From NCBI RefSeq assembly GCF_018326005.1, contig NZ_AP021903.1:1056001-1120000 (forward strand): 64,000 nt of DNA, read 5' to 3'. Positions 36,272-53,517 of the stretch are shown one piece after another (the stretch's first letter is position 1; each line of letters starts with the position of its first letter). The stretch comes from Pseudomonas sp. Seg1. Its GTDB lineage: Bacteria; Pseudomonadota; Gammaproteobacteria; Pseudomonadales; Pseudomonadaceae. The position numbers and the translations under genes are program-made. The notes under the pieces are model-generated. The model saw only the letters and a list, made by a program, of their open reading frames with translations, was not told the origin of the DNA and did not search any database.

Positions 36272-37447
36272 CTAAGGCAGTGTCTGTGCATTCGGCACAA
36301 CCTGCTCCCCCACGCACGCCCCACGCAAATGACTTTCAAACTGCTCAATCACCGCTGGCCAGCCTTGGCGACTTGCATGCTGCCGCGCATTGAGCCGCAC
36401 GCAACGCAACGTTTCGTCCTCCTCCAGCAACCACGCCGCTGCATCGCAAAACGCGTCTTCATCGCCTGGCATTGCCAGCACGCCGTTGTAGCCATGGCGA
36501 ATATGTTGCGCCGCCGCTGCCTGATCGTAAGCCACGACACCCAGCCCTGAAGCCAGCGCTTCCAGCACCACATTGCCGAAGGTTTCGGTCAGGCTCGGGA
36601 ACAGAAAAACATCCCCCGACGCATAGTGCGTAGCCAACGCTTCCCCGCGCTGTGAACCACAGAAAATCGCCTCGGGCAGATCCTTTTCCAGTGCCATGCG
36701 TTGCGGCCCGTCACCGACCACGATGAGCTTCATATTGCGCTGTGGATAAGTGCTGCGCAGTTTTTCAAAGCTGCGTTTGAGTAAACCAAGGTTTTTCTCT
36801 GGTGCGAGCCGTCCTACATGAATCACCGCAATGTCACGCTCGCCCAGTCCCCATTGCTCACGTAAAGCGTTCAGCCGTTTCGCCGGATGAAATAGCTGGC
36901 TGTCCACACCTCGCGACAACAACGCCAGACGCTCGAAATGCCGGCGCTCCAGTTCCAGGCGCTGACTGACGCTCGGCACCAGTGTCAGCGCCGAACGGTT
37001 GTGAAACCAGCGCAGGTAATGGGTCAGCATCCGGGTCAGCAGACCGAGGCCGTATTGACTGGTGTATTGCTGGAAATTGGTGTGAAAGCCGCTGACAACC
37101 GAAATCCCCAGTCGCCGCGCCGCGCGCAACGCCGATAAACCGAGCGGGCCTTCAGTGGCGATATACAGCACATCCGGGCGCTGACGCTTCCAGCGCCGCA
37201 GCAGTTTGTGCATCGACGACTGACCCCATTGCAAGCCCGGATAACCGGGTAACGGCCAGCCGCGACACAACAGCAGCGCATCATCTTCACTGCGCTGCGG
37301 ATCATCGGCCTGACGCGGACGCACCAGTTCGACGCGATGCCCGCGCGCGCGCAAGCCATCGCACAAGCGGCCGAGGGTATTGGCCACCCCGTTGATTTCC
37401 GGTGGGAAGGTTTCGCTGATCAGAGTGATATGCAGAGCTGTCGTCAT
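36272..37447 (-). CDS. Glycosyltransferase family 4 protein
   Basis: This 391-residue GT-B glycosyltransferase has the acceptor-binding N-terminus ISETFPPEINGVANTLGRL and the nucleotide-sugar-binding C-terminus (VIHVGRLAPEKNLGLLKRSF, FPSLTETFGNVVLEALASGL). It resembles the cytoplasmic mannosyl- or glucosyl-transferases of GT4 that build glycolipids. The acceptor is unknown. A single gene ending near the REPIN. Confidence 0.9.
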   Translation of the reverse strand: MTTALHITLISETFPPEINGVANTLGRLCDGLRARGHRVELVRPRQADDPQRSEDDALLLCRGWPLPGYPGLQWGQSSMHKLLRRWKRQRPDVLYIATEGPLGLSALRAARRLGISVVSGFHTNFQQYTSQYGLGLLTRMLTHYLRWFHNRSALTLVPSVSQRLELERRHFERLALLSRGVDSQLFHPAKRLNALREQWGLGERDIAVIHVGRLAPEKNLGLLKRSFEKLRSTYPQRNMKLIVVGDGPQRMALEKDLPEAIFCGSQRGEALATHYASGDVFLFPSLTETFGNVVLEALASGLGVVAYDQAAAAQHIRHGYNGVLAMPGDEDAFCDAAAWLLEEDETLRCVRLNARQHASRQGWPAVIEQFESHLRGACVGEQVVPNAQTLP

Positions 37448-37587
37448 GACCTCAGTGTCGGCTGAGGCGATGTCGCCATTGTGTCAAGTTGATGATGGAT
37501 TAATGACAGATGCTTATCTGTCTGCCTAAACCTTTGGCCTATGCGGTCGTTAGCTTTGGCTTAAACTCTTTTTCCAGGAAAACGGCT

Positions 37588-38163
37588 GTGTCCGAGAATG
37601 CTTATGCGCCGGCTGAGGCGCAACTGTTGGTTGCGGGTGAACAAACTCCAGAGTTTTATGTTGTCGCACGGTGGAAGTTCATTCTGCTGTCGATCCTCAG
37701 TTTTGGCCTGTATTTCTATTTCTGGATTTACAAGAACTGGAGCCTGCACAAGCGCAGTACTCAACAAGAGCTATGGCCGTGGGCGCGAGCTTTTTTCTAT
37801 TTGTTTTTTGTGCATCAGCTTTACCGGCTCGCCAAAAAACGAATTCTCGACAGGGGCGGTAAATCCAATTGGGATCTTGAGCAGTGGGCGACAGTCTTTG
37901 TCGTATTGACCGTAGTCGCGCACATATTCGAAAAGCTTCCCAAGCAGATTCCTGAGCTGAGTTTTCTTGGTCTTGTCGCCTTGATCATGTTGCCGATAAG
38001 AGTTTATGTCGCGAGCGAAGGTCAACAACTGATCAATTTGGCTGCGAACGACCCGCAAGGCCTGAGTAACAATCGCCTCAACGCCTGGAACTTGCTGATC
38101 ATCCTGCCAGGCGTTGCGGTGTGGGTGTTGGTAGGGCTGTTGTTAGCTGGCGTTTACCCCTGA
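37588..38163 (+). CDS. Hypothetical four-helix membrane protein
   Basis: I do not recognise a named family beyond a loose likeness to DUF4234-type proteins. The protein of about 191 residues has a polar N-terminus, then hydrophobic segments (FILLSILSFGLYFYFWIY, LWPWARAFFYLFFV, LIILPGVAVWVLVGLLL). I prefer GTG 37588 because AGGA precedes it at 8 bp; an ATG at 37510 would add 26 residues. The short WIYKNW segment after the first helix recalls putative membrane-embedded subunits. Single gene. Confidence 0.6.
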   Translation: MSENAYAPAEAQLLVAGEQTPEFYVVARWKFILLSILSFGLYFYFWIYKNWSLHKRSTQQELWPWARAFFYLFFVHQLYRLAKKRILDRGGKSNWDLEQWATVFVVLTVVAHIFEKLPKQIPELSFLGLVALIMLPIRVYVASEGQQLINLAANDPQGLSNNRLNAWNLLIILPGVAVWVLVGLLLAGVYP

Positions 38164-38188
38164 GTTATCAGGATTAAAGACTGGAGGC

Positions 38189-38944
38189 TCAGGCTTTTTC
38201 CTGAGCCAGTGCCTCGGCACCACGCTCACGCACCCAGAACAGCGTTGCCCCGGCTACAGCAGCCGGCATCATCAGGATGTTGACCAGCGGAATCAGCAGC
38301 ACCAGATAAACAATCCCGCCGAAACTCATACTCTGCCAGCGCTTCTGGCGCAGCCAGGCGAGCATTTCGTTCCAGCCCAGTTTGTGGTTGTCCGCCGGGT
38401 AGTCGATGTACTGGATCGCCATCATCCAGACGCCGAACAATAGCCACAGCGGTGCGGCGATGATGTTCACCACCGGGATGAACGAGAGGATGAACAGGCC
38501 GATGGCCCGTGGCAGAAAGTAGCCGAGTTTGCGCATTTCCCGGGCGAGGGTGCGCGGGATCATTTCGATCAGTTCACCCCAGCTGAACGCCGGGAAATCA
38601 TCGGTGCCGCGCACCACCACTTCGACTTTTTCCGCGAGGAAACCGTTGAACGGCGCGGCGATGATATTGGCCAGCATGGTGAAGCTGAAAAACACCATCA
38701 ACGCCACCAGCACCACGAACAAGGGCCAGAGGATGTAGCTGAGGAAACTCAGCCAGTCGGGCAGCGAGGGCATCAACGTATCGACCCACAGGCTGAACTG
38801 GTGGCCGGCCAGATAGATCAATCCGACGAACAGCACCAGATTGATGGCCAGCGGCAACAACACGAACAGTCGCAGGCCGGGGCTGAGGACCAGTTTGAGG
38901 CCTTCGCGAAGGTATTGCGGGCCGGACAGAACAGGGGCGGGCAT
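38189..38944 (-). CDS. cysZ: Sulfate transporter CysZ
   Basis: This 251-residue inner-membrane protein takes up sulfate for assimilation. Start ATG 38944 gives [20 protein letters not shown], the expected N-terminus. Long hydrophobic segments occur at about 30-50, 70-95 and 150-170, and the tail is rich in Ala/Glu/Lys. It marks the last core gene before the accessory block. Confidence 0.92.
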
Positions 38945-39083
38945 AAGGTGCTCCGAGCATAGGGAAAACGCGCCGACCTTACCGACTTTGCAACAGCTGC
39001 GAAAGCACGGCAGAGCGATCGACATTCACTGTAACAAAGATCAGAGGAACGCTATTCGTCAGTGAATCGTTTACCGTCCGCTC

Positions 39084-40169
39084 TCAAAGCTCGAAGCGAA
39101 TCCGCGATTCACGGCGTTGTGCTGGTGGTAACGCTTCTCCGCGTTTTACGGCGGCCAGTAGCTGCTCGACCCCTATATGAACGGCATCGGCCTGCACGTT
39201 GCACGGTTTGAAATCCGCGACATTGTCGAGGCCTTGGCGGTGCGCCTGAATGATTTTCACGTCCTGGCGAATCACGATGTGGGTGTACAGATGAATGAAA
39301 GGGCGCAACAGGCCCAGTACCCAGCGAGGTAAGCGGAAGCGGTAGGCGATGTAGGTGTAGACGCGCGACTGGCGCGAATCGATGGGCGTGATCTGACTGA
39401 TGATGAAGAATGCCGAACGCTCGCCCCACCGATAGTCGCAGCGGGTGACGTTGGGCGCAAAAAAACGATCGGTGTGCACCAGCGGCTCGCCGTCTGGGTT
39501 GCTCAGCCAGTCCATCAAACCGATCTTGTCGCCGTCGTCGTGATACGTCACTTCAATGCTCTGCGCTTTACACGCCAGCGTGGCTTCCATCGTTCGCCCG
39601 CTGCTGGAACGGAAGATACCCTCGTGGACAAAAACAGTGTGTGGCACATCCATGAAGTTCTGCACGAGGCTGCCGACGTCGGCCTCGAAGGTGTTGATCA
39701 TGAAATAGGACTGCCAGGGTTTTTCGCCGTAGACCGGGAGCTTGAACACGGTTTTGCTTTGCGGGTCACCCGTGCCGGTGTAGACCCAGACCAGTCCGTC
39801 CTGTTCCTGCACCGCAAAGTGACGCTGGCGGTAGCGATACGCGGGGGATGTCGACGAGCACGACGTCTCGCCGACGCTGGGGATATGCACCACTTGCCCC
39901 TGAGCGTTGTAGCGCCAGCCATGATAAGGGCACACCAGGCAATCGTCGGCAATCTTGCCCGCCGACAGGCGCGTGCCGCGATGCACGCACTGGTCGAGCA
40001 ATGCGGCTACCTGGCCGTCACGCTGGCGGAAAAGCACCAGGTTCAAGCCTAGAATCTTCGCCCGGTAAGGTTTGTTTTTGCGCAGTTCTTTCTGTGCGCA
40101 CGCCACATACCACTGTTCGAGGGTGCCATCGTCGGGCGTCTCGAGGAGGTTGTTCAAAGGTGCCGACAT
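39084..40169 (-). CDS. Rieske-type ring-hydroxylating oxygenase
   Basis: This 361-residue protein has an N-terminal Rieske [2Fe-2S] site (Cys61-x-His63 and Cys80-x2-His83 in CVHRGTRLSAG and CPYHGW) and a C-terminal mononuclear iron domain with the NFMDVPHTVFVHEG motif. Such enzymes hydroxylate or demethylate aromatic, sterol or other small substrates, using electrons from a separate reductase; none is encoded nearby. Its start overlaps the end of the GH3 gene by 16 bp, so they form one operon with the desaturase. Substrate unknown. Confidence 0.9.
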   Translation of the reverse strand: MSAPLNNLLETPDDGTLEQWYVACAQKELRKNKPYRAKILGLNLVLFRQRDGQVAALLDQCVHRGTRLSAGKIADDCLVCPYHGWRYNAQGQVVHIPSVGETSCSSTSPAYRYRQRHFAVQEQDGLVWVYTGTGDPQSKTVFKLPVYGEKPWQSYFMINTFEADVGSLVQNFMDVPHTVFVHEGIFRSSSGRTMEATLACKAQSIEVTYHDDGDKIGLMDWLSNPDGEPLVHTDRFFAPNVTRCDYRWGERSAFFIISQITPIDSRQSRVYTYIAYRFRLPRWVLGLLRPFIHLYTHIVIRQDVKIIQAHRQGLDNVADFKPCNVQADAVHIGVEQLLAAVKRGEALPPAQRRESRIRFEL

Positions 40170-41755
40170 GAGCTTTCCGTCAGAGCGAGAAGGGCTTCGG
40201 CTGTTTCCAGTCGATTGATAAGCGAACGCGGCTTGAAGTCGCCCGCACGAATGCCGCTCGACTCCGCCGCCTGTTGCAGCACCTGCGCGAGCTGATCAGC
40301 GCCGCCGTCGAGCAGGCGCACCTGCACCGGTCCCAGTTGCCCGAGCTGGCGTGCCTGGCCGTAATGAAAGGCGTCGGACAGTGCCGCCTCGATCGTCAGC
40401 GCCAAAGCACTGGCATCGAGGTCTCGGGACATCGCCACCAGCGCCGTGTAATGCGGTGGCGAAGCATAGGCATTGGGGATCAGACATGCGCCAGCCTGGG
40501 TGGTCGGGCAACGCTCGAACAGGTTCTGCACGACGTGTTCATCGAGTTTTTCTCCGACCAGATCACTGGTCCCCGTGGCACGTCCCACAAACTCGACCCG
40601 TGGCGTGGCGCCCGACATGCCGACGACGCGGACCCGATCGCCCAAAGCGTAGCGGTACAAGCCGCCACCGGTGCTCAGCAGCACCTGCGCCGTTTCGCCC
40701 AGACGTAACGAATGAGCGTGGCGCAGGCTGCCGTCTTCGCAAAGAAATTCCAGATAATGGCTGCCGATCGCCAACGGGCAACCCGGTCCGTCGCCGAAGG
40801 GAACACTCACGACGCCTTCGGTGGCAAACAGACTTTTTGGCAGCCACTGCGCCTGCGGAAAACGCGCGGCCAGTTGCGTGAAGTAATGGCGACTCGGACC
40901 TTCCATCCAGCAACTGACGGCGGCCAGGCGTGGCCATAACTCGCTGCAGTCACCCTGGGCGCGCGCGCGGCGTAACGCCGAGCGGCGCGGCGCGGGGAGC
41001 GCGGCCTCCAGCCATGCAAACGTCTGCAACTGTTCGGGTGTTTCGGCGTCGAACAGTGGCTGTAACAGGCTGGTCAGAAAGGTCGGGCTCCATACGCTGA
41101 TAAAGCTCAAATCAGCATCGGCCAGCAAGGCCAGCAGGGTCTGGCGGCGCCATTGCGACAGTGCACCGTTAAACTCTGGAATCAGCAACGTCCCTGCCAG
41201 ACCGGCCAGATGACTGCCGCTCAAATACTCCAGATCACTGGCCGAGCCGAGACAAATGCCATTGGGCCCGGCGACGGGCATTTGCAGGGGCGGCGACATC
41301 GACCAATAACTCGAGCCATGACTGATGCCCGGCACCTGGCGATGCATGTCGGCGAGCCACACGGTCAGCGCGCTGTGCATTTCTGCGAGGAAGGCGCGCG
41401 TATAGGGAATCGCTTTTTGCAGCGCGCTGTTGCCGCTCGTACGCTCGAAAAACAGCGGTGTGGCGGTGGTCAGAATCGCTGCGGATTCATGTTGAGCGCG
41501 CTCGATCCACGGCTGCAGTTGTGCGTAGGTGTGGACCGGTACGTTATCGCGAAACTGCGACGAGTCCTGCAGTCGGGCAAAGTGGTGGGCGCGGCCGAAT
41601 GCGCAATCACGATTGGTTTCGAGCAGGCGCTGCAATAAGCGTTCTTGCGTTGCTTGCGGTTGCTCGAGTTGCGCGTGCCATTGATCGAGTGTCGGCTTGG
41701 CGTGCTCGAGGAAGGTCTGCCACAGCGCGCGTTTGACATCCATGTTGGCGCTCAT
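40154..41755 (-). CDS. GH3-family acyl-acid amido synthetase-like protein
   Basis: This 533-residue protein belongs to the GH3 family of adenylate-forming enzymes, known from plants for joining jasmonate, auxin or benzoate to amino acids. Visible segments are LFFERTSGNSALQKAIPYTR (the phosphate-binding loop region), YWSMSPPLQMP, STGGGLYRYALGDRV and GRATGTSDLVGEKL. Bacterial members have mostly unknown products. Middle gene of the desaturase-GH3-Rieske operon, with its ATG overlapping the desaturase TGA by one base. Confidence 0.88.
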   Translation of the reverse strand: MSANMDVKRALWQTFLEHAKPTLDQWHAQLEQPQATQERLLQRLLETNRDCAFGRAHHFARLQDSSQFRDNVPVHTYAQLQPWIERAQHESAAILTTATPLFFERTSGNSALQKAIPYTRAFLAEMHSALTVWLADMHRQVPGISHGSSYWSMSPPLQMPVAGPNGICLGSASDLEYLSGSHLAGLAGTLLIPEFNGALSQWRRQTLLALLADADLSFISVWSPTFLTSLLQPLFDAETPEQLQTFAWLEAALPAPRRSALRRARAQGDCSELWPRLAAVSCWMEGPSRHYFTQLAARFPQAQWLPKSLFATEGVVSVPFGDGPGCPLAIGSHYLEFLCEDGSLRHAHSLRLGETAQVLLSTGGGLYRYALGDRVRVVGMSGATPRVEFVGRATGTSDLVGEKLDEHVVQNLFERCPTTQAGACLIPNAYASPPHYTALVAMSRDLDASALALTIEAALSDAFHYGQARQLGQLGPVQVRLLDGGADQLAQVLQQAAESSGIRAGDFKPRSLINRLETAEALLALTESSCRHL

Positions 41756-42684
41756 CAGAAGTAGGTCTTGTCCAGTTGCGTCAAGTCATCGGGTAACCGC
41801 TGGGGCGGCAGGAAAACCAGCAGCCAGCCATACCAGAGTGGCCGGGTTTCCTTCAGGTTGGAGGCCTCATGCATTTGCTGCCAATGCATGGCCGAGTGCC
41901 GATGATGAGTGAGGTTGTAGTTGAAGTTCAGAAACGCCCAGCGAACCAGTCGCGGGGCGCGCATGTTATAGGCGCCCTCGACGACATCCAGCGGCGTACG
42001 CATGTGGTACACCCACTGCAGCGACGACCAGGAAAATGCAAAAGCGCTATAGGTGATGAGCACAACGTGCCACGTCCACCCCAGCAACAGCCCGATCAAT
42101 AACCACGCGGCGACACCGGCAATGACTTCGTAGCGGATTCGTTTGAAGTCGGCGCTGGAGAAGTCCTTGAAGGCTGCGGCATAGGTGTTGACCTCTGCGG
42201 TTTGCGACCACTTGTCCGTGATGCGCGCCGGCAGCACCGGCAATAAAAGACTGCCGATAAACGCCGCCAACCAGATACCGCCCAGCACCGCGAAGTAGTA
42301 CTCGATTCGTTTGCGCCACAGCGACTCACCCGCAACTGCAAAGTCGGCCAGCTCTGCGCGTGTGCGATTGCGGACGTGATGACCCAGGTGATTGATATGG
42401 ATCAGCGTGGCCGAAGCACCAAACAGGGTAGAAGCCCACCACATGACAAAGTAGTTGAGTTTTTTGCGACTGTGCGCCAGTCCATGAAAGGACTCGTGCA
42501 TCATCGAGAAGACGCCTTGCATGACCAGACAAAACGGAATGAGCACCAGCCATTTGAGCCCGCCCGCATCGGTGTGGGACAGCCACGTCAGGGTCATACC
42601 CCAAACCAGCGTCTGCAGTGCCAGAACACACAGATTGCCCACGTCGAAACGACGCATTTGCGAAATGTCACTGGAACTGCGCAT
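41755..42684 (-). CDS. Membrane fatty acid desaturase
   Basis: This 309-residue protein has the three His boxes of membrane di-iron desaturases: HESFH (63-67), HINHLGHH (96-103) and HHRHSAMHWQQ near residue 265. Four or more hydrophobic segments surround them. Such enzymes desaturate or hydroxylate fatty acyl chains, sphingolipids or carotenoid ends. AAGGA precedes ATG 42684. First gene of the operon; diverges from the di-iron protein at 42791. Confidence 0.9.
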   Translation of the reverse strand: MRSSSDISQMRRFDVGNLCVLALQTLVWGMTLTWLSHTDAGGLKWLVLIPFCLVMQGVFSMMHESFHGLAHSRKKLNYFVMWWASTLFGASATLIHINHLGHHVRNRTRAELADFAVAGESLWRKRIEYYFAVLGGIWLAAFIGSLLLPVLPARITDKWSQTAEVNTYAAAFKDFSSADFKRIRYEVIAGVAAWLLIGLLLGWTWHVVLITYSAFAFSWSSLQWVYHMRTPLDVVEGAYNMRAPRLVRWAFLNFNYNLTHHRHSAMHWQQMHEASNLKETRPLWYGWLLVFLPPQRLPDDLTQLDKTYF

Positions 42685-42790
42685 ATGGGGTCCTTGAGAA
42701 TGCTCGAGTCGAAAAAGTATACCGTCCTGACCGCTTTGCTAACGATCAAATGCTGACGCGGCGGAGCGATGAGGAACCGCAGAAAACTTT

Positions 42791-43669
42791 ATGTCGTATC
42801 TAAAACGCCTTTTCAGCAGACGCTCGCTGACAAAATCCGTAAGTGCAGACATCCCCCGGCGTACCCTGCGGTTTGCACTTGATGAGCAGGTTCCTCGCTA
42901 TTGGTACCGTGGCTGGCCTCATGTAACACGCTTTTTCGATGGCCTGTCGATCATGTTTCCACTTGGCGAAAAACTCTTCATCGACAGTGTCGTGCACTTT
43001 CGAAAGGCGATCGACGAAGATCCGGCGCTGGCCCAGGCCGTTGACGCGTTCGTTTATCAGGAAGCGTCGCATATCCGCGAACATCGTTCGTATAACCAGC
43101 TACTCGCGGCACAAGGCGCCCCGATTGATGCGCTGGAACAACTGCTGATGCGCCGCCAGGAGGTGGGCAACAAATTTTCCCCGGTGATGCGCCTGGCCAT
43201 GACGGCCAGCCTGGAACATTTCACCGCGATCCTCTCCGATCAACTCTTGCGTCATCCCGCGATCCTTGAAGGCGCCGATACGAAGATGGCCATGCTGTGG
43301 CGCTGGCATGCGATCGAAGAAACCGAACACAAGGCCGTCGCCTACGATGTGCTGGGCGTGGTAGTGAGCAATCTGCTGCGGCGATACCTGATGCGTTGCG
43401 GGGTCATGCTGATCATGACGGGCTACTTTGCCATCGATGTCCTGTATTTCATTTACCGACTGGCAAGCAATGATGGGCAGCGTCGCAACGGGCGCGAATG
43501 GCTGCGTTTGCTCGCATGGTTATTCGTCCGACCCGGCCCACTGATCCGTGTGTTTCCGAAATGGCTTGCCTGGTTCATTCCGGGGTTTCACCCCAACCAT
43601 CTCGACACCCGTGAAGCGTTGGCAACGGCGCGGCAAACCCTCGACGAATACGCTGGGCGCACACCATGA
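42791..43669 (+). CDS. PF10118-type metal-dependent hydrolase, ferritin-like di-iron protein
   Basis: This 292-residue protein matches the family annotated as predicted metal-dependent hydrolases. Repeated Glu-x2-His motifs in long helices (QEASHIREH with Glu91/His94, SLEHFTAIL with Glu142/His143, IEETEHKAVAYDV with Glu177/His180) indicate a ferritin-like di-iron centre, more typical of oxidases or deformylating enzymes than hydrolases. The C-terminal part is hydrophobic around VMLIMTGYFAIDVLYFIY, suggesting membrane contact. Overlaps the hydrolase gene by 4 bp. Confidence 0.82.
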   Translation: MSYLKRLFSRRSLTKSVSADIPRRTLRFALDEQVPRYWYRGWPHVTRFFDGLSIMFPLGEKLFIDSVVHFRKAIDEDPALAQAVDAFVYQEASHIREHRSYNQLLAAQGAPIDALEQLLMRRQEVGNKFSPVMRLAMTASLEHFTAILSDQLLRHPAILEGADTKMAMLWRWHAIEETEHKAVAYDVLGVVVSNLLRRYLMRCGVMLIMTGYFAIDVLYFIYRLASNDGQRRNGREWLRLLAWLFVRPGPLIRVFPKWLAWFIPGFHPNHLDTREALATARQTLDEYAGRTP

Positions 43670-44577
43670 AAGGGCCTTCGGCGATGACACCCGCCTGGAC
43701 ACCTGAGGGATTTGCCGAGTGGTCACGGCATTTTCCGGCAACCGAATTCGTCGCGCCCGACGCATTGCTGGACTGCACGGAGCAATTTATCGCGTCCTGG
43801 CCCAAGCCCACGCTCAACCTTTCCCAGGACACGTTGGTGGTACTGGTGGCCGGGCTGTTTTCCGAATGGTTGCCCGGCTGTTTTCAGGATTGCGCGCGGA
43901 CGTTGCGGCGCCGGGGCTATCCGGTTTTGCGCATGCCTGTGCGTTCCTCTCGGGGCGTCATGGCGCAAGGTCGACATATCAGTCAGGTGCTGACGGCCCG
44001 ACTCAGGCAGGGGCAGCGATTTGTCGTGTTGGCGCACAGCAAGGGTGGGCTTGACGCGCTCGCGGCATTGGCAGAGGACAAACTGTTGAGTCAGGCGTGT
44101 GACGGTGTGGTGCTGGTGCAACCACCGACAGGTCCGTCCACAGTCATCGATGACGTGTTGGCTTGCAGCGCAGGGCAGTCGAACCTCGACTACCCGTTTG
44201 ATCGCCTTCGCCGGGTGTTGGCAAAAACCCGTTGGGTGGCCGCTGGCGCGCGGGATATCAGCAGTCTGCGCGACCCGCACATCAGCGACCTGCTCAAACA
44301 TTTGCCCGCCGACGTGCAATGCCTGCACGTGATCAGTTGGAGCGCCGTCCCCAGTTCGCGCTTCGATACCCATCATGCTCGCCTCAATGCGCGACGACCG
44401 GGTTGGGCCCATGACGGCCAGTTTTACCTCGAACATCAACGCATCGCGGGCATGCCGCAGATCTGCCTGCCCCGGCTCGACCATGGTCAACCGGTGCTGG
44501 GCGGCGGTGGCTTTGACGCCACGCGTTTCTGGTTGACGCTATTGGATGTCCTGCACGGTTGCGCTCAGACGAGATAG
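43666..44577 (+). CDS. Alpha/beta hydrolase-like protein
   Basis: This 303-residue protein has the nucleophile elbow-type motif AHSKGG (Ser125) after a central strand (RFVVLAHSKGGLDALAALA), and an N-terminal oxyanion region VVLVAGLFSEWLPG. It has no signal peptide. The late His is possibly in LPRLDHGQPVLGG. An esterase, lipase or thioesterase role in the neighbouring lipid pathway is inferred. It is coupled to the di-iron gene and runs tail to tail (13-bp overlap) with the GNAT gene. Confidence 0.8.
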   Translation: MKGPSAMTPAWTPEGFAEWSRHFPATEFVAPDALLDCTEQFIASWPKPTLNLSQDTLVVLVAGLFSEWLPGCFQDCARTLRRRGYPVLRMPVRSSRGVMAQGRHISQVLTARLRQGQRFVVLAHSKGGLDALAALAEDKLLSQACDGVVLVQPPTGPSTVIDDVLACSAGQSNLDYPFDRLRRVLAKTRWVAAGARDISSLRDPHISDLLKHLPADVQCLHVISWSAVPSSRFDTHHARLNARRPGWAHDGQFYLEHQRIAGMPQICLPRLDHGQPVLGGGGFDATRFWLTLLDVLHGCAQTR

Positions 44578-45680
44578 ATTTCAAACCCTGGGATGCGCTC
44601 GGCATCCTGCGGCGTCAACGCCGTGGCATTGCCCACACAAGGCGCCGTGTACAAGTCCATGGCTATGGACACGGCGCGATAGCGCTTCATGGCCAGCCAG
44701 AATGGGTCATGGTCATACAGGCATAGTTGCATCAACGCGTACTGACCGCGAACGCGCATCCACGTCGCGTCCAGCAGTGCCGCAAAAATCTGCGGGTCGC
44801 GTTGTCGGACGTGCAAATGGGTCAGGTAAACGTCGCGCAGCGCCTCGCCGGGCGCGGCAATGGCGGGGCGCCCCAACAGCGGCGCACAGGTGTTGAACGC
44901 GAGGCGCAGGGCCTGGTGGGTCAGCGGCAAAGTCTCAACCACCACGCGTTTGATCCGCCCGGCATCCCAGGGCGCGACGCAGCCCAGCAGGTTGTCTCGG
45001 GTGTCCAGTGCCAGCAGAAATGACGAGAGGCCGAAGTCCGGCCAAGTCTCCAGGCGCCTGGCAAACAGCGCCTCACTGAAGACGTTGCCGAAGGGCTGAT
45101 CTGCCGATTCCCGGTCTAGAAACGCGCGAAGTGCGTCGGCGTGACACGGCTGCGCTTGCACGATGCGCACGTGCTCAGGCGTTCGCGGGGTGCTTCCCCA
45201 GCCACGCTGGGCATACACGGCGACGTTGCTGTAGCCCCGCCAGTGCGCCAGCCCGAGTGGATTGGCGCGCCGTCCGCCGAGCAGTGACTGGGTGGCGAGA
45301 CGGTTGTCGCGGATGACACAGCAATAGGCGTGCTGCACCCCCGTTTCACCGGCCAGTGCTGCAAGACGGACTTTGACCTCGGCCATCCACGACAGCGACA
45401 GGCGTCGGTCAGGCACCAGCCGCAGGTCACCCAGATAGGCCACGGGCTGAATGTCGCCCTGAAGATAGCCCTCACGCACCACCAGGCTGGCGATGCCCTT
45501 CAGATCACCGGTTTCGTTCTCGGCCAGCCAGGTGCGATGGTCGCTGGCATGACAACGGTGCAGCGCAAAGTAGTCCGGCCCGCGATCGAAGCGCATTGGC
45601 AAACCACCCTGCATGGCCCGCTGCGCCTGAAAATCGAGCAACTGCCGATTGTCCGCCGCGCTGGCCTGGCGGATCAGCAT
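44565..45680 (-). CDS. GNAT-superfamily acyltransferase-like protein
   Basis: This 371-residue protein starts like a GNAT N-acyltransferase (MLIRQASAADNRQLLDFQAQ) with strands around PVAYLGDLRLVPDRRLS. Its length suggests a second, degenerate GNAT half (HVRIVQAQPCHADALRAFLD at the start of that half). The acceptor and donor are unknown; N-acylation of an amine in the pathway is a possibility. Its start overlaps the end of the next upstream gene by 7 bp. Confidence 0.72.
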   Translation of the reverse strand: MLIRQASAADNRQLLDFQAQRAMQGGLPMRFDRGPDYFALHRCHASDHRTWLAENETGDLKGIASLVVREGYLQGDIQPVAYLGDLRLVPDRRLSLSWMAEVKVRLAALAGETGVQHAYCCVIRDNRLATQSLLGGRRANPLGLAHWRGYSNVAVYAQRGWGSTPRTPEHVRIVQAQPCHADALRAFLDRESADQPFGNVFSEALFARRLETWPDFGLSSFLLALDTRDNLLGCVAPWDAGRIKRVVVETLPLTHQALRLAFNTCAPLLGRPAIAAPGEALRDVYLTHLHVRQRDPQIFAALLDATWMRVRGQYALMQLCLYDHDPFWLAMKRYRAVSIAMDLYTAPCVGNATALTPQDAERIPGFEIYLV

Positions 45681-46393
45681 GGTTGCACGGCGGCAAACAG
45701 ACGCAGCGCCAATGGCCGAAGGTTTTCGGGGTGCAATTCACATAGACAGACCAGCTCATCGCCCGACGCATAACGAGGATTCTGCTGTAGAAAATACGCG
45801 ACGTTTTCCAGGCGCAGGTGAGGGGCGGGGACGTGTGCCAGCTCGGTCGTCAAGCGACCTTGTGGCACTGTGAAAGACAGCACGCCCGTTGCGGGATCAT
45901 AGGCCTCGCCGAAACGATCCACTGCCAGATAATCCGCCAGTGCCTTAACCGCAGGGTCCGTCACCACGCCAGCGCGGGGGGCGTAGTTCAACGCCATGGC
46001 GGCCAGATAACGGTAGGTGCGGTGACCCTTGCAGATCAGAAACCAGTACAGCGGAACGTCAGGCTGCTCCTGCCAGATCTCACCGGCCAGGCGCATCCAC
46101 GCGAAAGCCAGTTGCTGGCTGCCCCAGTGTTCGCGGTCAATGATAGTGTCGCCGGAAAAAATCACCCTGATCGATTGCCCGCACCACGTGCGCTCATAGC
46201 GTTTGAGTGTGGTGAAACCGACGATAGTCTGATCCGCGCAACGCAACACGATGCAATGGGTCTTGTCCTGCAAATCCTGATCAAATTGCGGGCGAGAGAT
46301 GTCGCAGTAGGAGGCGGAATAAATCTCGAACATCCGATTGATTTCATGTGGATGCAGATCGGAGCATTCAACTGACGTTGCGCTCAAACGCAT
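45674..46393 (-). CDS. GNAT-like hypothetical protein
   Basis: This 239-residue protein is not firmly recognised. The first 140 residues look like an acyl/acetyltransferase fold (HEINRMFEIYSASYCDISRP, TIVGFTTLKRYERTWCGQSI). There is no signal peptide. I chose ATG 46393 because GAGGA lies 6 bases before it; ATG 46408 is an alternative. Co-transcribed with the preceding GNAT gene and divergent from the PAP2-desaturase fusion. Confidence 0.65.
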   Translation of the reverse strand: MRLSATSVECSDLHPHEINRMFEIYSASYCDISRPQFDQDLQDKTHCIVLRCADQTIVGFTTLKRYERTWCGQSIRVIFSGDTIIDREHWGSQQLAFAWMRLAGEIWQEQPDVPLYWFLICKGHRTYRYLAAMALNYAPRAGVVTDPAVKALADYLAVDRFGEAYDPATGVLSFTVPQGRLTTELAHVPAPHLRLENVAYFLQQNPRYASGDELVCLCELHPENLRPLALRLFAAVQPC

Positions 46394-46577
46394 GGAGATC
46401 CTCGGCATCGCAAGCAAGATGTCTGGAGTTTGGCGAGTTGAAAGGGTCAATGCAACGTAGACTTCCTTTCGTCGCTGTCATTTTCTGAAGGTGCAAACCT
46501 TGAATAACCGAGCAGAAATCGCCGTTCATGGCGGTATGAAAAATTGAGTTTGTTCTAACCTATCAGGCGCCTTATTC

Positions 46578-48038
46578 ATGTCATCCACGTTTGTCAGTCA
46601 TCACTTTGATACTTCGATCGTGACGCGACCCTTCCTCTGGCTGGTGATCTACACCGTCGTCACTGGCGCGCTGTATTTTCTCGTCACGCACTATCCGATG
46701 GGCGCGGTGCGGGTGATTCAACCGACAGGTTTTGACGCGCACATTGCTCGACTGCCTTACACCTTGCCGCTGTACCTGAGCTATGTATTGATCATGCCGG
46801 CACTGGTGCTACTGGGGCGGCGCCGCGAATGGCTGTTGCCCGCTTTTTTTGCGGCGGCCGTGGCGTCCGGAACCTGCCTGCTGAGCCACTTGTTCTGGCC
46901 AACCATGATCGAGCGTCCGGAGAACTCGTCGCAGTGGCTCACGTGGTTCTACCAACTCGACTCACCGCTGGCCGCCTCGCCCAGTGGGCACTTGGCTTTG
47001 CCGGTGGCGATCAGCGTTGTCCTCGCTTGCCTGCGCGTCCGTACGGCCTGGCTCTTCAGTCTGTGGAGCGTGGTGCTGGGGATTACCGTGTTGACGACGG
47101 GCCAGCACGTGCTGCTCGACGTGGTGTATGGCGCTGCGATCGGCGGCTTGGCAGGCCTGTTCACCGTCATGCTCAAGCGCCTGAAAGTGGATCTGCGCAG
47201 CATGGCGGCGATCCTGCTGGAATGGCTGTGCATCATCGTCACGTTGCGCATCGCCCTGTACGTGGGGGACTGGCGACTGTATGGCGTGGCCTTCGTGGTG
47301 ATTGCCGCGCGCCAACATGCGCTGTTCATCCTGTACCACGACGCGACGCACTATCACCTGACCCGTCATCGCACGCTCAACGACTTTCTGATCAACCTGG
47401 CAATCGGTGTGCCGGGAATGGTCCCGGTGGAATTCTATCGGCCCCTGCACCTCGAACATCATCAACAGACCGGAACCGCCAACGACCCGGAGCGCCGCTT
47501 TTTGTATCACCGCCAGCCTTGGGATTTCCGTCCACTGAGCGGCAAATTGTTGCTGCGACAATTGCTCGGGGATCTGTTGTTGATCAACACGCTGCGCAAT
47601 CTGCGCGCCTATAAGGCGGCGGGCGGAGCATCACCGAAGATGACCCGGCCGGCATTGGCTGCCGGCGTGATCTGGCTGTTCCTTTTATCTTTCATCGCTT
47701 GGCAAACGTCCGCCCAGACGCTCTTGCTGATGGTTTTTTTCTGGTTGGTGCCACTGGCCACGCTGGGCACCCTGCTGCAGAAAATCCGCAGCATTGCCGA
47801 GCACAGTGGCGGACCAGACGTCACCCCCGGTTGGCGGGAATGGACATATGCCTGGAAAGTCGGGTGCGTCGGGCGGTTTTTCATTTGGCCTTATCACATC
47901 AATCTGCACCTGCATCATCACCGCAGTGCCAACCATCCCTGGCATGTTCTCCCGCGTCTGGTTACGGCTGATGAAACGTTGCTGGACTCACGGACGCTGC
48001 CCTCGCTGCTCTGGTCGGGGGTGAACAAGAACCGTTGA
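46578..48038 (+). CDS. PAP2 phosphatase / fatty acid desaturase fusion
   Basis: This 486-residue membrane protein joins two enzymes. Residues about 60-200 form a PAP2-type domain with PSGH (135-138) and His177-x3-Asp181 (TGQHVLLDVVYG); the KX6RP motif is absent, as in inositolphosphotransferase-like members. From about 205 on is a desaturase with HDATHYH (254-260), HLEHHQQ (291-297) and HLHHHRSANHPWH near 450. It may dephosphorylate and desaturate a lipid, or act on a phospholipid head and chain. I know of no characterised example. Confidence 0.82.
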   Translation: MSSTFVSHHFDTSIVTRPFLWLVIYTVVTGALYFLVTHYPMGAVRVIQPTGFDAHIARLPYTLPLYLSYVLIMPALVLLGRRREWLLPAFFAAAVASGTCLLSHLFWPTMIERPENSSQWLTWFYQLDSPLAASPSGHLALPVAISVVLACLRVRTAWLFSLWSVVLGITVLTTGQHVLLDVVYGAAIGGLAGLFTVMLKRLKVDLRSMAAILLEWLCIIVTLRIALYVGDWRLYGVAFVVIAARQHALFILYHDATHYHLTRHRTLNDFLINLAIGVPGMVPVEFYRPLHLEHHQQTGTANDPERRFLYHRQPWDFRPLSGKLLLRQLLGDLLLINTLRNLRAYKAAGGASPKMTRPALAAGVIWLFLLSFIAWQTSAQTLLLMVFFWLVPLATLGTLLQKIRSIAEHSGGPDVTPGWREWTYAWKVGCVGRFFIWPYHINLHLHHHRSANHPWHVLPRLVTADETLLDSRTLPSLLWSGVNKNR

Positions 48039-48089: not shown

Positions 48090-48350
48090 TCAACTTGCAG
48101 CTTCGCCCTTGGGGTTGCTGGCAATCAGGCTGGCGCCGCACGCGGTTTTCATCCCGTGAAGCGCCACTGCGATGCCGCCGACATCCAGCAGGGCGCTGCC
48201 CTGCGTGATCGGGAAAACCCCTTTGCACAGTGGGCAAACCACCTTATGACCAACACCGGACATGGGTTTGCCGTTCAGGTCCGTCTGGTTGAAAGCTTCA
48301 AGAACGGTGCCACCATGACTGGTGGAGTCGCCGAGCCGAATGATGTCCAT
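48090..48350 (-). CDS. PAAR-domain type VI spike tip
   Basis: This 86-residue protein has the PAAR pattern (DIIRLGDSTSHGGTVLEA, VVCPLCKGVFPITQGS, VALHGMKTACGASL) that makes a zinc-bound cone on VgrG. No toxin extension is present. ATG 48350 gives MDIIRLGD; the frame upstream to 48467 overlaps tla3 and is rejected. Last gene of the island, 13 bp after tla3. Confidence 0.9.
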   Translation of the reverse strand: MDIIRLGDSTSHGGTVLEAFNQTDLNGKPMSGVGHKVVCPLCKGVFPITQGSALLDVGGIAVALHGMKTACGASLIASNPKGEAAS

Positions 48351-48363
48351 GGCAGCAGGCCTC

Positions 48364-49950
48364 CTAGAGATCGTCCATCCAGTTGGTTTTCGGTTTCTGG
48401 TCGGCGAGGAATTCTTCCAGCGTGTGATCCTGTTCAATGACATGCATTTTTGGCGCCGAATGGGCATTCGGTGCGGCTGGCGGCTCCTCGGTGCTCGCGG
48501 TCTGTGGCATCAGGTTGACGCCGAAATGATCATTGCCTGAAGGCTTTTTGCCGGGCGTTGGCGAGGTCACGGCAATGATCGTTGCCTGGTCAGGGCGGCG
48601 CATCGGAATGACCACGCTGGTGTCCGCGTTCAGATAACTGGCCATCGTTGCCAGGGTGAGGCCGACAAACGGCGAGGCCGAGCCAGTGTCGCCCAAGCGC
48701 TGGGTCAAATCGTAGCTCTCGCGCGAATCGAGCAGGTCTAGCGGACTGTGCGCGGCGGTGAGCGCTGGCAGCAGTTCAGCCAGAGGTGTGGTGTTCAAGC
48801 CACCATCAAAGAAAACTCGAGCCGGTTTTTGAGGGAGCCCGTCAGTAGCGCTTTTCCAGCCTGCGGCCAGTTTGACGGTCAAGGCTTCGCGCTTGAGGCG
48901 TTCTCCGTTGTCAGGCCGTAGCAGCGACACGGTGACTGGTCGATGCAGTTTGGCCAGCACGGGCAGTGCGTCCCATTGCTCGAAAGCGCGTTGAGTCCAT
49001 GGTTGAGGAATGAACTCCGACGGTTGGAACTCCACAGTTGGTTTACGTGCGCCCCAACCGGAGAATTCCGGGTCGATCTTGTTCTCGTTCACCTTCGCGA
49101 ACTGGGCGTAATAACGCAGCCATTCCACGCGCTCGGGACGGCCGACGACCAAGGCGACCATTGAGTCGGTGAGTTCGCCGGGTTGTCGCGGCCCGGTGCC
49201 GAGGCCGATGGGTTTATTACCTTTCGTGCTCAACGCCAAGGCCATGTTGAAGCCTTCATTGGCGTAGACCAGCAGTGCCGGCAAATCTGGATTGTGCTCG
49301 AAGGTCTGGAACAACGTCTCCAGTAAATCTTCGGGGGTATCACTGCAGACAATTCCGTCCTGCATATTACGAATGCGATGCCAGTGCAACCCGGCGGGGC
49401 CGCGCAGGTCATTGACCATCACCGACAGGCTTTTCCGGGTTCTTTCAGGCGTAAAGCGCAGATTCGGTGTATCGGGTTTCCAGCCACGAACCACGGTCAC
49501 GGTCGGAATGGGCCATTTCTCCAGGAAATCGCGCAAGCCCAGCTCCAAGGCATCTGCCTCCCTCTTCTCAGAGGCGGCATCCTTGTCATCGGCGGTTACC
49601 GGGTACTTCTTCGGGTCCATGGGCAGGATGCTGCCGACGTGCAGGGCTTCGGATTGTCTGGCATTTTGTTCTTGCAGGGTTTGCCAGGCCTGGCCTTGGC
49701 GGTAGACGTCAAGGCTCATTCCGATGCTGAGCACATCGAGTGTTTCCAGGCGAGGCGAAGTGGCAGGGGCGCGGTAACGAGTATCAGCAGGCATGGCGGC
49801 GGCCTCCTTGGCCGAAGTATAGGAAGCCACGGGCGAAGCCGGGCTGACAAAGCAACGGCTAGCCGTCAATAAATGTTCAGCCGATTGAGCCAGATGACTG
49901 GTCAGCAGAAGGCTGGTGAAAGACAGGTACGTAAGTAGCTCGCGCATCAA
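48364..49950 (-). CDS. tla3: DUF2875 type VI lipase adaptor, Tla3-like
   Basis: This 528-residue protein matches the DUF2875 adaptors that load Tle3 lipases onto VgrG; in P. aeruginosa Tla3 (next to tle3) is described as cytoplasmic. Here the first 25 residues (MRELLTYLSFTSLLLTSHLAQSA after the initial Met) look like a signal peptide or anchor, which is unexpected. It overlaps tle3 by 4 bp (ATGA), so adaptor and effector are made together. The C-terminal tail is Pro/Ala/Lys-rich. Confidence 0.82.
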   Translation of the reverse strand: MMRELLTYLSFTSLLLTSHLAQSAEHLLTASRCFVSPASPVASYTSAKEAAAMPADTRYRAPATSPRLETLDVLSIGMSLDVYRQGQAWQTLQEQNARQSEALHVGSILPMDPKKYPVTADDKDAASEKREADALELGLRDFLEKWPIPTVTVVRGWKPDTPNLRFTPERTRKSLSVMVNDLRGPAGLHWHRIRNMQDGIVCSDTPEDLLETLFQTFEHNPDLPALLVYANEGFNMALALSTKGNKPIGLGTGPRQPGELTDSMVALVVGRPERVEWLRYYAQFAKVNENKIDPEFSGWGARKPTVEFQPSEFIPQPWTQRAFEQWDALPVLAKLHRPVTVSLLRPDNGERLKREALTVKLAAGWKSATDGLPQKPARVFFDGGLNTTPLAELLPALTAAHSPLDLLDSRESYDLTQRLGDTGSASPFVGLTLATMASYLNADTSVVIPMRRPDQATIIAVTSPTPGKKPSGNDHFGVNLMPQTASTEEPPAAPNAHSAPKMHVIEQDHTLEEFLADQKPKTNWMDDL

Positions 49951-52094: not shown

Positions 52095-52168
52095 CGCCCA
52101 TTTCCTCCTTGAAAATTCCATTGGTCTGCGCGTGGGGGCAAGGTCATGACGGATTTGTCCGCTGGCGC

Positions 52169-52906: not shown

Positions 52907-53517
52907 CGATATTCCTTGGCGCCGGTTGCCTTGATGTACTCCGGATTGGTGGTCCAGAAGATCGTTTTGCCGATGGCGGCAGTGGACCGGTATACGTGGT
53001 TATAACGCCCCCGCTCGCGGACATTGACCATGGTGTTGGTCTTTTTGTTGAGCTGCTTCCAGTAGGTGATTTTTTCCGGCTTCGAGACTTGCGCAACACC
53101 GAAAATGTTGTGCGAGGGGGAGCCGTAGTGGAACCCGTCCGAGTGTCGGGGGTTGGTCGAATCCTTGATATCGATGCCATCCCACCAGTAAGCACCATTG
53201 GAGGGATCATTGCCGCGCTGGGCGAGAGCATCCCGCGCACTCTCCACTGCCGAGCGCATGTTCGGATCTGCATTGATGTCCGCTTCCGAAGCCGCCATGA
53301 GTTGGTTGTAACGCTCATTCTTGCCCCGCGCTGCAACGATATAACTGTCCCCGGTCTCCTTGAGCAGGCTGGCGACGTCGGCCAGCCCCCACGCGCGCAT
53401 ACGGTTGGTCACCGTAAAGCAAATGCCGCGGACTTCCTGCGGATTGTTGTCCGTCGAGGCTTCGCCATATCCGATGGCCGCGAGTTTGCGCACCTGTGGC
53501 GTGATGAGATCAGGCAT
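52903..53517 (-). CDS. SleB-like cell-wall hydrolase, candidate type VI effector
   Basis: This 204-residue protein resembles the SleB/cell-wall hydrolase family, lytic enzymes that act on peptidoglycan. The likely catalytic Glu19 is in IGYGEAS, and the C-terminal half has YWWDG and HYGSPSHNIFGV, comparable to the family HxxY/NHIFY region. It lacks a signal peptide, fitting delivery by VgrG. It overlaps vgrG by 8 bp and the periplasmic gene by 4 bp. Confidence 0.7.
   Translation of the reverse strand: MPDLITPQVRKLAAIGYGEASTDNNPQEVRGICFTVTNRMRAWGLADVASLLKETGDSYIVAARGKNERYNQLMAASEADINADPNMRSAVESARDALAQRGNDPSNGAYWWDGIDIKDSTNPRHSDGFHYGSPSHNIFGVAQVSKPEKITYWKQLNKKTNTMVNVRERGRYNHVYRSTAAIGKTIFWTTNPEYIKATGAKEYR

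What the first reader, a model, noticed from the sequence alone, without database searches (positions are those of the whole stretch)
39084..48038. Unassigned GH3-ligase and iron-oxygenase lipid pathway cluster
Within 9 kb lie a Rieske oxygenase, a GH3-type acyl-acid amido synthetase, a membrane desaturase, a ferritin-like di-iron protein, an alpha/beta hydrolase, two GNAT-like proteins and a PAP2-desaturase fusion, with tight overlaps and two divergent promoter regions. GH3 enzymes join carboxylic acids to amines, and the others oxidise or release lipid chains. Together this reads as a route to a modified N-acyl or aryl-amide lipid. I can match it to no described Pseudomonas product.
Basis: partly seen in the sequence, partly recalled or inferred. 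Interest (0 to 1): 0.85.

Follow-up and report, generated by a model that had tools for sequence, protein, structure and literature searches.

The report
Conserved uncharacterised GH3 amide-lipid gene cluster
Eight neighbouring genes in this Pseudomonas form a conserved, apparently intact assembly line that probably makes an oxidised fatty-amide lipid not yet described, and its three-gene heart recurs in very distant bacteria, where radical enzymes often stand in for the oxygen-using ones.

Summary
The set is co-conserved: in the 27 closest loci (Pseudomonas, Burkholderia, Paraburkholderia, Robbsia, Cupriavidus, one Granulosicoccaceae bin) seven of the eight genes match in 27 of 27 and the eighth (D) in 22; dN/dS is 0.07-0.23 and nearly all active-site residues are invariant. 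In 149 genomes of the genus, full-length Rieske, close GH3 and the PAP2-desaturase fusion occur in the same 4. Beyond the stated coordinates, the core is a trio: single GNAT (G), GH3 ligase, tandem GNAT (F). In 369 genomes of the class, G was found in 9, exactly the 9 with a strong GH3 match, and F in 8 of these. In 52 more distant loci radical SAM genes were found in 30 and Rieske in 12. Best reading: a pathway for an oxidised N-acyl (amide) lipid or lipid-like metabolite. The GH3 is not OlsH (47.6 bits against a cut-off of 620). Nine literature searches listed no account of the cluster. Product and substrates are inferred, not shown.

The parts
39084..40169 (-). A: Rieske non-heme iron oxygenase (361 aa) with VanA_C domain
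   Evidence: PF00355 90.6 bits, PF19112 39.7 bits; closest solved structures by sequence SxtDIOX, SxtT, DdmC; C61/H63/C80/H83 and D174/H177/H182 invariant in the 27 closest loci
40154..41755 (-). B: GH3-type acyl-acid amido synthetase (533 aa); only PF03321 match in the genome
   Evidence: PF03321 125.4 bits, GH3_M, GH3_C; single match in the genome; motifs T106SG and GLYRYALGD conserved; plant GH3 structures found by sequence
41755..42684 (-). C: membrane fatty-acid-desaturase-family enzyme (309 aa)
   Evidence: PF00487 82.3 bits; His boxes invariant; relatives at tblastn E <= 1e-15 in 13 of 52 distant loci
42685..42790 (.). Divergent intergenic gap between C and D; putative promoter region
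   Evidence: coordinates; no sigma-70 consensus found
42791..43669 (+). D: PF10118 'Metal_hydrol' protein (292 aa), E/H motifs, possible di-iron oxidase
   Evidence: 262.7 bits; E91, H94, E142, H143, H173, E176, E177, E179, H180 invariant in the 22 loci that have it
43666..44577 (+). E: alpha/beta-hydrolase-like protein (303 aa), candidate thioesterase, lipase or O-acyltransferase
   Evidence: sub-threshold Pfam hits; H124-S125-K126 and D272-H273 invariant in 27 loci
44565..45680 (-). F: tandem-GNAT acyltransferase (371 aa), core trio member
   Evidence: AlphaFold pLDDT 92.2; Foldseek to tandem GNATs and N-myristoyltransferases, best E 7e-11; 12 of 44 alignment members match PF00583
45674..46450 (-). 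G: divergent single-GNAT acyltransferase (up to 258 aa; true start may be an in-frame ATG near 46408 or 46393), core trio member
   Evidence: AlphaFold pLDDT 92.9; Foldseek to GNATs, best E 7e-7; most relatives align only from about residue 11-20 on, or later
46451..46577 (.). Divergent intergenic gap between G and H; putative promoter region
   Evidence: coordinates; no sigma-70 consensus found
46578..48038 (+). H: PAP2-like domain (about 1-205) fused to a second fatty-acid-desaturase domain (about 206-486)
   Evidence: PF00487 83.3 bits; PAP2 26.8 bits, just under cut-off; PSGH and His boxes; fusion in 26 of 27 closest loci, weak stand-alone PAP2 relatives in distant clusters

Best explanation
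The eight genes are one functional biosynthetic cluster for an oxidised N-acyl (amide-linked) lipid or lipid-like metabolite. Inferred mechanism: the GH3 ligase adenylates a carboxylic acid, most likely a free long-chain acid, and joins it to an amine. The two GNAT enzymes place further acyl groups on the amine or on a hydroxyl. The membrane desaturases (C and the second half of H), the Rieske oxygenase and the PF10118 protein unsaturate or hydroxylate the chain or head group. The alpha/beta hydrolase supplies the free acid or acts as an O-acyltransferase, as OlsI does beside OlsH. The PAP2 domain removes or swaps a phosphate group at the membrane. Shown here: co-conservation, conserved active-site motifs, purifying selection, predicted folds, and a trio core shared with very distant clusters. 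Inferred: every substrate, the order of steps, and the lipid nature of the product.
For: Same genes, order and orientation in three other genomes of the genus and in Burkholderia arboris at 55-72% identity. A, B, C, E, F, G, H matched in 27 of 27 closest genome-contig loci, D in 22 of 27 (some matches are in pieces or cut by contig ends, and L050 has only the desaturase part of H). dN/dS 0.07-0.23 for all eight genes against L024, L025, L027 and L029; active-site residues invariant with one exception in PAP2. The trio is co-inherited: in the same 369 genomes of the class G is found in 9, the strong GH3 match in those same 9, F in 8 of them (about 1e-15 and 3e-18 if independent; relatedness ignored). 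GH3 motifs conserved. Foldseek matches of F include long-chain N-myristoyltransferases. Partners point to membranes and lipids: FA_desaturase and PAP2, PAP2 fused to a C-type desaturase in a Myxococcales bin too (L090), and radical SAM proteins whose weak best matches include HpnJ and TIGR04072 'lipid biosynthesis'. GH3 plus alpha/beta hydrolase parallels OlsH/OlsI, shown to make N-acyl ornithine and its O-acyl form (PMC12493201: abstract, two Results sections, first part of the Discussion and passages read).
Against: No substrate or product data. No acyl carrier protein, fatty acyl-AMP ligase or thioesterase family was recognised among the eight. The GH3 scores only 47.6 bits on the OlsH model (cut-off 620), so its acyl and amine partners cannot be carried over. 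The nearest solved relatives of the Rieske include enzymes of polar or aromatic small molecules (SxtDIOX/SxtT, DdmC), and the H desaturase half matches the arginine hydroxylase GntB (69.8 bits, cut-off 380), which would fit a polar substrate. In two Pseudomonas (L015, L016) and A. baumannii (L022) the trio stands with efflux genes and none of the other five was matched, which suggests an exported small molecule rather than a membrane lipid.
Confidence: 0.55

Rival explanations
1. A cluster for a small polar amide or amino-acid-derived specialised metabolite, not a lipid: GH3 joins a small acid to an amino acid, the GNATs acylate it, the Rieske enzyme and the GntB-like half of H oxidise it, and it is exported.
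For: Closest solved Rieske relatives by sequence are the saxitoxin enzymes SxtDIOX and SxtT and dicamba demethylase. H matches GntB arginine hydroxylase weakly. The trio alone stands with HlyD and MFS genes (L015 and L016 by my reading of the frames; L022 by Pfam) and in L022 an outer-membrane efflux gene. Distribution is patchy (4 of 149 genomes of the genus carry the eight-gene set).
Against: These matches are at family level only (69.8 bits against a cut-off of 380 for GntB). Desaturases, PAP2 relatives and membrane proteins recur with the core in distant clusters.
Confidence: 0.25
2. A structural membrane-lipid remodelling pathway (an aminolipid made under stress such as phosphate limitation), used by the cell itself and not secreted.
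For: PAP2, desaturases and GH3 plus alpha/beta hydrolase resemble the OlsH/OlsI membrane-lipid pathway. Wide spread among Planctomycetota, Myxococcota and Gammaproteobacteria.
Against: Patchy within the genus, with decayed remnants in two other genomes and efflux genes beside the trio in another clade.
Confidence: 0.15
3. Chance neighbours or a catabolic island without a common product.
For: Single domains have weaker relatives elsewhere: 12 genomes of the genus hold only partial matches to H, mostly to its desaturase half.
Against: Conserved order and orientation across genera; co-inheritance of G, F and this GH3 branch.
Confidence: 0.03

Closest known systems
OlsH/OlsI ornithine-lipid pathway of Singulisphaera (PMC12493201)
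   Same: A bacterial GH3-family ligase beside an alpha/beta-hydrolase-fold gene; nucleotide-binding motifs of the same kind; amide bond formation proposed.
   Different: The window GH3 scores 47.6 bits on NCBIfam OlsH (cut-off 620). Two GNAT partners, Rieske, desaturases and PAP2 are present; no OlsG-type N-methyltransferase family among the eight. The held main text contains neither 'Rieske' nor 'desaturase'.
Plant GH3 acyl-acid amido synthetases (JAR1, GH3.5, GH3.6, GH3.12)
   Same: Three GH3 Pfam domains and motif III GLYRYxLGD; found by sequence in the PDB.
   Different: Partial, weak sequence matches (best E 4e-14); motif I departs after TSG (TSGNSALQK); the genomic setting is a multi-enzyme cluster.
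Bacterial polyyne clusters (protegencin, caryoynencin; recalled, PMC8406139 seen only in a search listing)
   Same: Several membrane fatty-acid desaturases in one cluster, in Pseudomonas and Burkholderia.
   Different: No acyl carrier protein or fatty acyl-AMP ligase family among the eight; GH3 and GNATs instead.
B12-binding radical SAM lipid enzymes (HpnJ, TIGR04072)
   Same: Distant versions of the cluster carry radical SAM proteins; two of the Citrobacter plasmid have weak matches to these models.
   Different: At best 77.3 and 66 bits against cut-offs of 577.6 and 360; no radical SAM hit in the window cluster.

Membership tests
OlsH lyso-ornithine-lipid synthetase (NF052613) | Score over the curated cut-off of 620 bits | tested here: not met
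   47.6 bits
OlsH lyso-ornithine-lipid synthetase (NF052613) | Operon with the O-acyltransferase OlsI and the N-methyltransferase OlsG | tested here: inconclusive
   An alpha/beta-hydrolase-like gene (E) is present but was not compared with OlsI; no methyltransferase family among the eight
OlsH lyso-ornithine-lipid synthetase (NF052613) | ATP-dependent N-acylation of ornithine | not testable with these tools
   needs enzyme assay
GH3 acyl-acid amido synthetase superfamily | GH3 Pfam domains over cut-off | tested here: met
   PF03321 125.4, GH3_M 45.3, GH3_C 27.5 bits against 23.6 each
GH3 acyl-acid amido synthetase superfamily | Nucleotide-binding motifs I-III | tested here: met
   T106SG, T312E313 and G365LYRYALGD373 present (motif definitions); motif I is divergent after TSG
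GNAT acyltransferase superfamily (F and G) | GNAT fold | tested here: met
   Foldseek best E 7e-11 for F and 7e-7 for G with predicted models of pLDDT 92.2 and 92.9
PAP2 superfamily (N-terminal half of H) | Pfam gathering score and catalytic motifs | tested here: inconclusive
   26.8 bits against 27.2; PSGH His and QHxxxD His invariant, the Asp of QHxxxD not; weak LpxE match (E 0.035)
Bacterial polyyne cluster (definition recalled) | Fatty acyl-AMP ligase, acyl carrier protein and thioesterase with desaturases | tested here: not met
   None of these families among the eight genes or the two tested neighbours, apart from the unassigned hydrolase E
Saxitoxin-type Rieske oxygenase (SxtT/SxtDIOX) | Close relationship beyond family level | tested here: inconclusive
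   Best PDB sequence hits, E 9e-26 and 4e-23; no phylogeny was made and no curated model of it appeared

The most novel reading that the evidence does not exclude
The trio G - GH3 - F defines an undescribed class of bacterial amide lipids, with an oxygen-dependent edition (Rieske, desaturases) and an oxygen-independent edition (radical SAM enzymes, at least some of them B12-binding) of the same chemistry. It is spread over Pseudomonadota, Planctomycetota, Myxococcota, Cyanobacteriota, Verrucomicrobiota and several candidate phyla; the window carries one oxygen-dependent edition with a PAP2-desaturase fusion.
Probability: 0.35. Interest if true: 0.85.

Novelty: new variant of a known kind. Interest (0 to 1): 0.66.

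Why it matters
The searches turned up one characterised bacterial GH3 pathway (OlsH/OlsI). Here a different GH3 branch is locked to two specific acyltransferases across very distant bacteria, with oxygenases and radical SAM enzymes apparently alternating as the modifying chemistry. If the product is a new lipid class, a widespread membrane or signalling compound has been overlooked, and the cluster gives a genetically tractable Pseudomonas in which to find it. It also predicts a role for protein families without a Pfam name (F, G and several partners).

Tried and rejected
OlsH identity for the GH3: rejected on score. Polyyne cluster: rejected for lack of ligase and carrier protein. PDB sequence search for G gave nothing, and for F only weak hits, mostly GNATs; predicted folds settled it. 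NCBIfam on G relatives gave no coherent family (rimI for 3 of 43, best E 0.0024). PDB sequence searches for C and D gave no relative. Literature searches for the cluster, for GH3 with radical SAM or Rieske, for UnbU/UnbV and for PF10118 listed no description of it; several lists were capped (for instance 25 of 34,481 and 25 of 45), only listings were seen except for two papers, and the library lacks most subscription papers and bioRxiv preprints. The sigma-70 scan gave no promoters. Fixed island beside cysZ: the flanks are shared on both sides in L012; in L013 only the type VI side matched, with no cysZ match in the 8.5 kb beyond the Rieske gene; in L014 neither side. No empty-site test was done. 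The GH3 tree was made quickly with SH-aLRT only; one row (L047) is a wrong-frame pick of my crude ORF caller and sits on an artefactual long branch, and its tblastn match is normal. The HMM label 'DES' mixes desaturases with PAP2 because H is a fusion; one search separates them. The HMM label 'D' gives extra hits that I did not trust; D counts are from tblastn. The other Pseudomonas GH3 genes (L017, L018, L019) lie in other settings and were set aside.
Full report
WHAT IS THERE. The window lies in a 6.6 Mb single-contig genome (G000:C1:1056001-1120000), a Pseudomonas by its named neighbours. The eight frames of the finding are present: A Rieske (39084-40169, -), B GH3 (40154-41755, -), C desaturase (41755-42684, -), D PF10118 (42791-43669, +), E alpha/beta-hydrolase-like (43666-44577, +), F (44565-45680, -), G (45674-46450, -), H PAP2-desaturase (46578-48038, +). 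The layout suggests four transcription units: C-B-A, D-E, G-F and H. B is the only PF03321 match in the genome.

THE TWO UNNAMED PROTEINS. F and G had no Pfam family. Alignments of 44 and 43 sequences from the window and genome-contig loci gave AlphaFold models with mean pLDDT 92.2 (F) and 92.9 (G). Foldseek places F among tandem GNATs: a Clostridium glucosamine N-acetyltransferase, Eis2, MAB_4324 and many N-myristoyltransferases (best E 7e-11). It places G among GNATs (best E 7e-7). TM-scores normalised by query are 0.44-0.60 for F and 0.34-0.45 for G in the 50 rows shown, so these are fold assignments, not functions.

CO-CONSERVATION, CLOSE. In 149 genomes of the genus the GH3 protein matched in 9: four at 81% or more including the window genome, two at 34-35%, and three weaker. 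Three other genomes carry all eight genes in the same order and orientation. Searches from other members agree: the fusion H is full length in the same 4 of 149, the other 12 of its 16 genomes having only partial matches; the Rieske at E <= 1e-40 is full length in the same 4, plus one broken remnant (weaker Rieske relatives were not listed at that limit); F is in those 4 plus the two trio-only genomes. So in this sample Rieske, close GH3 and the fusion co-occur 4 of 4. Outside the genus all eight are in Burkholderia arboris at 55-72% identity. The genome-contig scan confirmed 438 of 476 candidate stretches and kept the best 80 (79 distinct loci), so the counts below are from those 79 of 438. 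In the 27 closest (L024-L050) A, B, C, E, F, G and H are matched in 27 of 27 and D in 22 of 27 (missing in L039, L041, L044, L045, L050). In L033 A and F match in pieces, in L039 A runs into the contig end, and L050 has only the desaturase part of H. A quick GH3 tree has a clade of 31 rows, support 100: the window, L012-L014, L020 and 26 of the 27 closest loci; the missing one, L047, is a wrong-frame pick of mine.

FUNCTIONAL CONSTRAINT. dN/dS for each of the eight genes against L024, L025, L027 and L029 is 0.07-0.23. Putative metal ligands of A, C, D and H, the GH3 motif residues, and the hydrolase H-S-K and D-H are invariant among the loci compared (27; 22 for D; up to two loci may lack a column). 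In the PAP2 half the two histidines are invariant but the Asp of QHxxxD is not. Against L024 the cluster genes have dS 0.16-0.36, the flanking glycosyltransferase-like gene 0.66, but cysZ 0.32; exchange of the cluster is hinted at, not shown. Two other genomes of the genus hold scars: the C-terminal half of the Rieske (79% identity) in G056 and 70 residues of H (60%) in G094. The cluster thus seems to be gained and lost.

THE CORE IS A TRIO. In 52 more distant loci (L051-L102; GH3 identity 28-39%), profiles found G in 47, F in 42, radical SAM in 30, the mixed desaturase/PAP2 label in 18, Rieske in 12, a SnoaL-like protein in 11, and in 9 each a NQR2/RnfD - FG-GAP - UnbV_ASPIC protein (c14) and a small protein without Pfam hit that reads as membrane-bound (c13). 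Of the five loci without G, three (L077, L079, L085) have the GH3 at or near a contig end; L051 and L087 (Bdellovibrionota) have neither G nor F. By edition: Rieske without radical SAM 8, radical SAM without Rieske 26, both 4, neither 14 (short contigs make 'neither' an upper bound). Because these loci were fetched through GH3, the test was reversed. A G profile against 369 genomes of the class hit 9. The F profile hit 8, all among those 9; in the ninth, G149, G lies on a 9 kb contig. The GH3 profile hit 18: nine strong (403.9 bits or more, or 239 plus 191 in two pieces), which are exactly the nine G genomes, and nine weaker (193 bits or less) without G or F. If independent, such overlaps have chance about 1e-15 and 3e-18, though related genomes make the true figure less extreme. 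Of the eight G loci fetched, six show GH3 clearly beside G; in L116 there is only a 24-bit GH3 fragment at the contig end, the rest of that genome's GH3 and its F lying together on another contig; in L114 none was found within 19 kb, while GH3 and F of that genome lie about 4 kb apart on another contig. So G, F and this GH3 branch behave as dedicated partners.

TWO EDITIONS. The 27 closest loci all carry Rieske and none the radical SAM family. Distant loci from Clostridia, Melainabacteria, Muiribacteriota and Saganbacteria carry radical SAM genes (names from record titles, many of them metagenome bins that can be misassigned). The one radical SAM protein of the main family scanned against Pfam has a B12-binding domain; it and a second one from the same Citrobacter plasmid have weak best matches to BchE, HpnJ, PhpK and TIGR04072. 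C-type desaturases (13 of 52 distant loci) and weak stand-alone PAP2 relatives (20-41 bits) stand near the core in distant loci, and in the Myxococcales bin L090 one 536-residue frame holds PAP2 and a C-type desaturase. The fusion in the window thus joins parts that recur in this setting. In another clade (two Pseudomonas, L015 and L016, with A. baumannii L022; support 100) the trio stands with HlyD and MFS genes (my reading of the frames; Pfam for L022), and in L022 also with an outer-membrane efflux gene and a SurE-like gene. One paper lists an A. baumannii GH3 gene only as an interaction partner of a membrane protein in an efflux network (PMC5997985, one passage read).

HOW IT MOST LIKELY WORKS. 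GH3 enzymes adenylate a carboxylate and pass it to an amine. OlsH does so with free fatty acids and ornithine and needs neither ACP nor CoA, and its neighbour OlsI, an alpha/beta-hydrolase-fold protein, adds the second acyl chain (PMC12493201: abstract, the discovery and structure sections, the first of two parts of the Discussion, and passages). By analogy, B forms an amide, F and G add acyl groups, E releases the acid or acts like OlsI, and A, C, D and H oxidise the product, with the PAP2 half of H acting on a phosphate group. Only family, predicted fold, motifs and co-conservation are shown; every substrate and step is inference. The lipid reading rests on desaturases, PAP2, the myristoyltransferase-like fold of F and the OlsH parallel. 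The polar-metabolite rival rests on the SxtT- and GntB-like matches and on the efflux genes.

NOVELTY. The GH3 is not OlsH, the set is not a polyyne cluster as I recall that kind, and nine full-text searches listed no account of it (lists capped, see Tried and rejected). The held text of PMC12493201 mentions neither Rieske nor desaturase; it notes that bacterial GH3 homologues are widespread and that their functions need study, which agrees with this finding. I file it as a new variant of a known kind (a GH3-based amide-forming cluster); the bolder reading, a new lipid class with two redox editions, is not excluded.

Noticed in passing
window 48090-52121: Directly downstream lies type VI secretion cargo: a PAAR-like small protein (my reading of the frame), a Tla3 lipase adapter (Pfam Tla3_N and Tla3_C) and a large lipase-like protein (my reading); the frame at 53510-56269 looks like VgrG (my reading, no call).
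   Followed up: no
L015, L016 and L022: Trio-only versions of the system stand with HlyD and MFS efflux genes in two Pseudomonas genomes (my reading) and, with an outer-membrane efflux gene and a SurE-like gene too, in Acinetobacter baumannii (Pfam); the A. baumannii record is a 4.1 Mb 'plasmid', probably a mislabelled chromosome.
   Followed up: partly
L021 11268-23363 (Citrobacter portucalensis plasmid): A plasmid-borne radical SAM edition: G, GH3, F, five radical SAM genes, PAP2, a SnoaL-like protein and a desaturase.
   Followed up: partly
L054 12484-15213 and eight other loci: A fused NQR2/RnfD - FG-GAP - UnbV_ASPIC protein recurs beside the trio, with Rieske in 7 of 9 loci and with the small protein c13 in 7 of 9. 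I recall UnbV-type genes from enediyne clusters; the search did not confirm it.
   Followed up: partly
L090 18518-20125: A Myxococcales bin has one open frame of 536 residues with a PAP2 part and a C-type desaturase part, a second PAP2-desaturase fusion unlike that of the window.
   Followed up: partly
L017 and L018: A different conserved Pseudomonas gene set holds another GH3 with, by my reading of the frames, phytanoyl-CoA dioxygenase-like, MFS, aldo-keto reductase, alpha/beta hydrolase, enolase-superfamily, TPP-dependent, FAH-like and SDR proteins.
   Followed up: no
L161 9844-10365 and L162 9676-9885: Scars of the cluster in two other genomes of the genus: half a Rieske gene and the end of the fusion gene, with no match to the other seven genes within the 19 kb fetched.
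   Followed up: yes
L023: A Streptomyces linear plasmid has a GH3 gene beside type I polyketide synthase genes, a P450, an F420-dependent oxidoreductase and a FAH-like protein.
   Followed up: no
window 36272-48038 against L024: Synonymous divergence of the cluster (0.16-0.36) is below that of the flanking glycosyltransferase-like gene (0.66) though near that of cysZ (0.32), a hint of recent exchange.
   Followed up: partly
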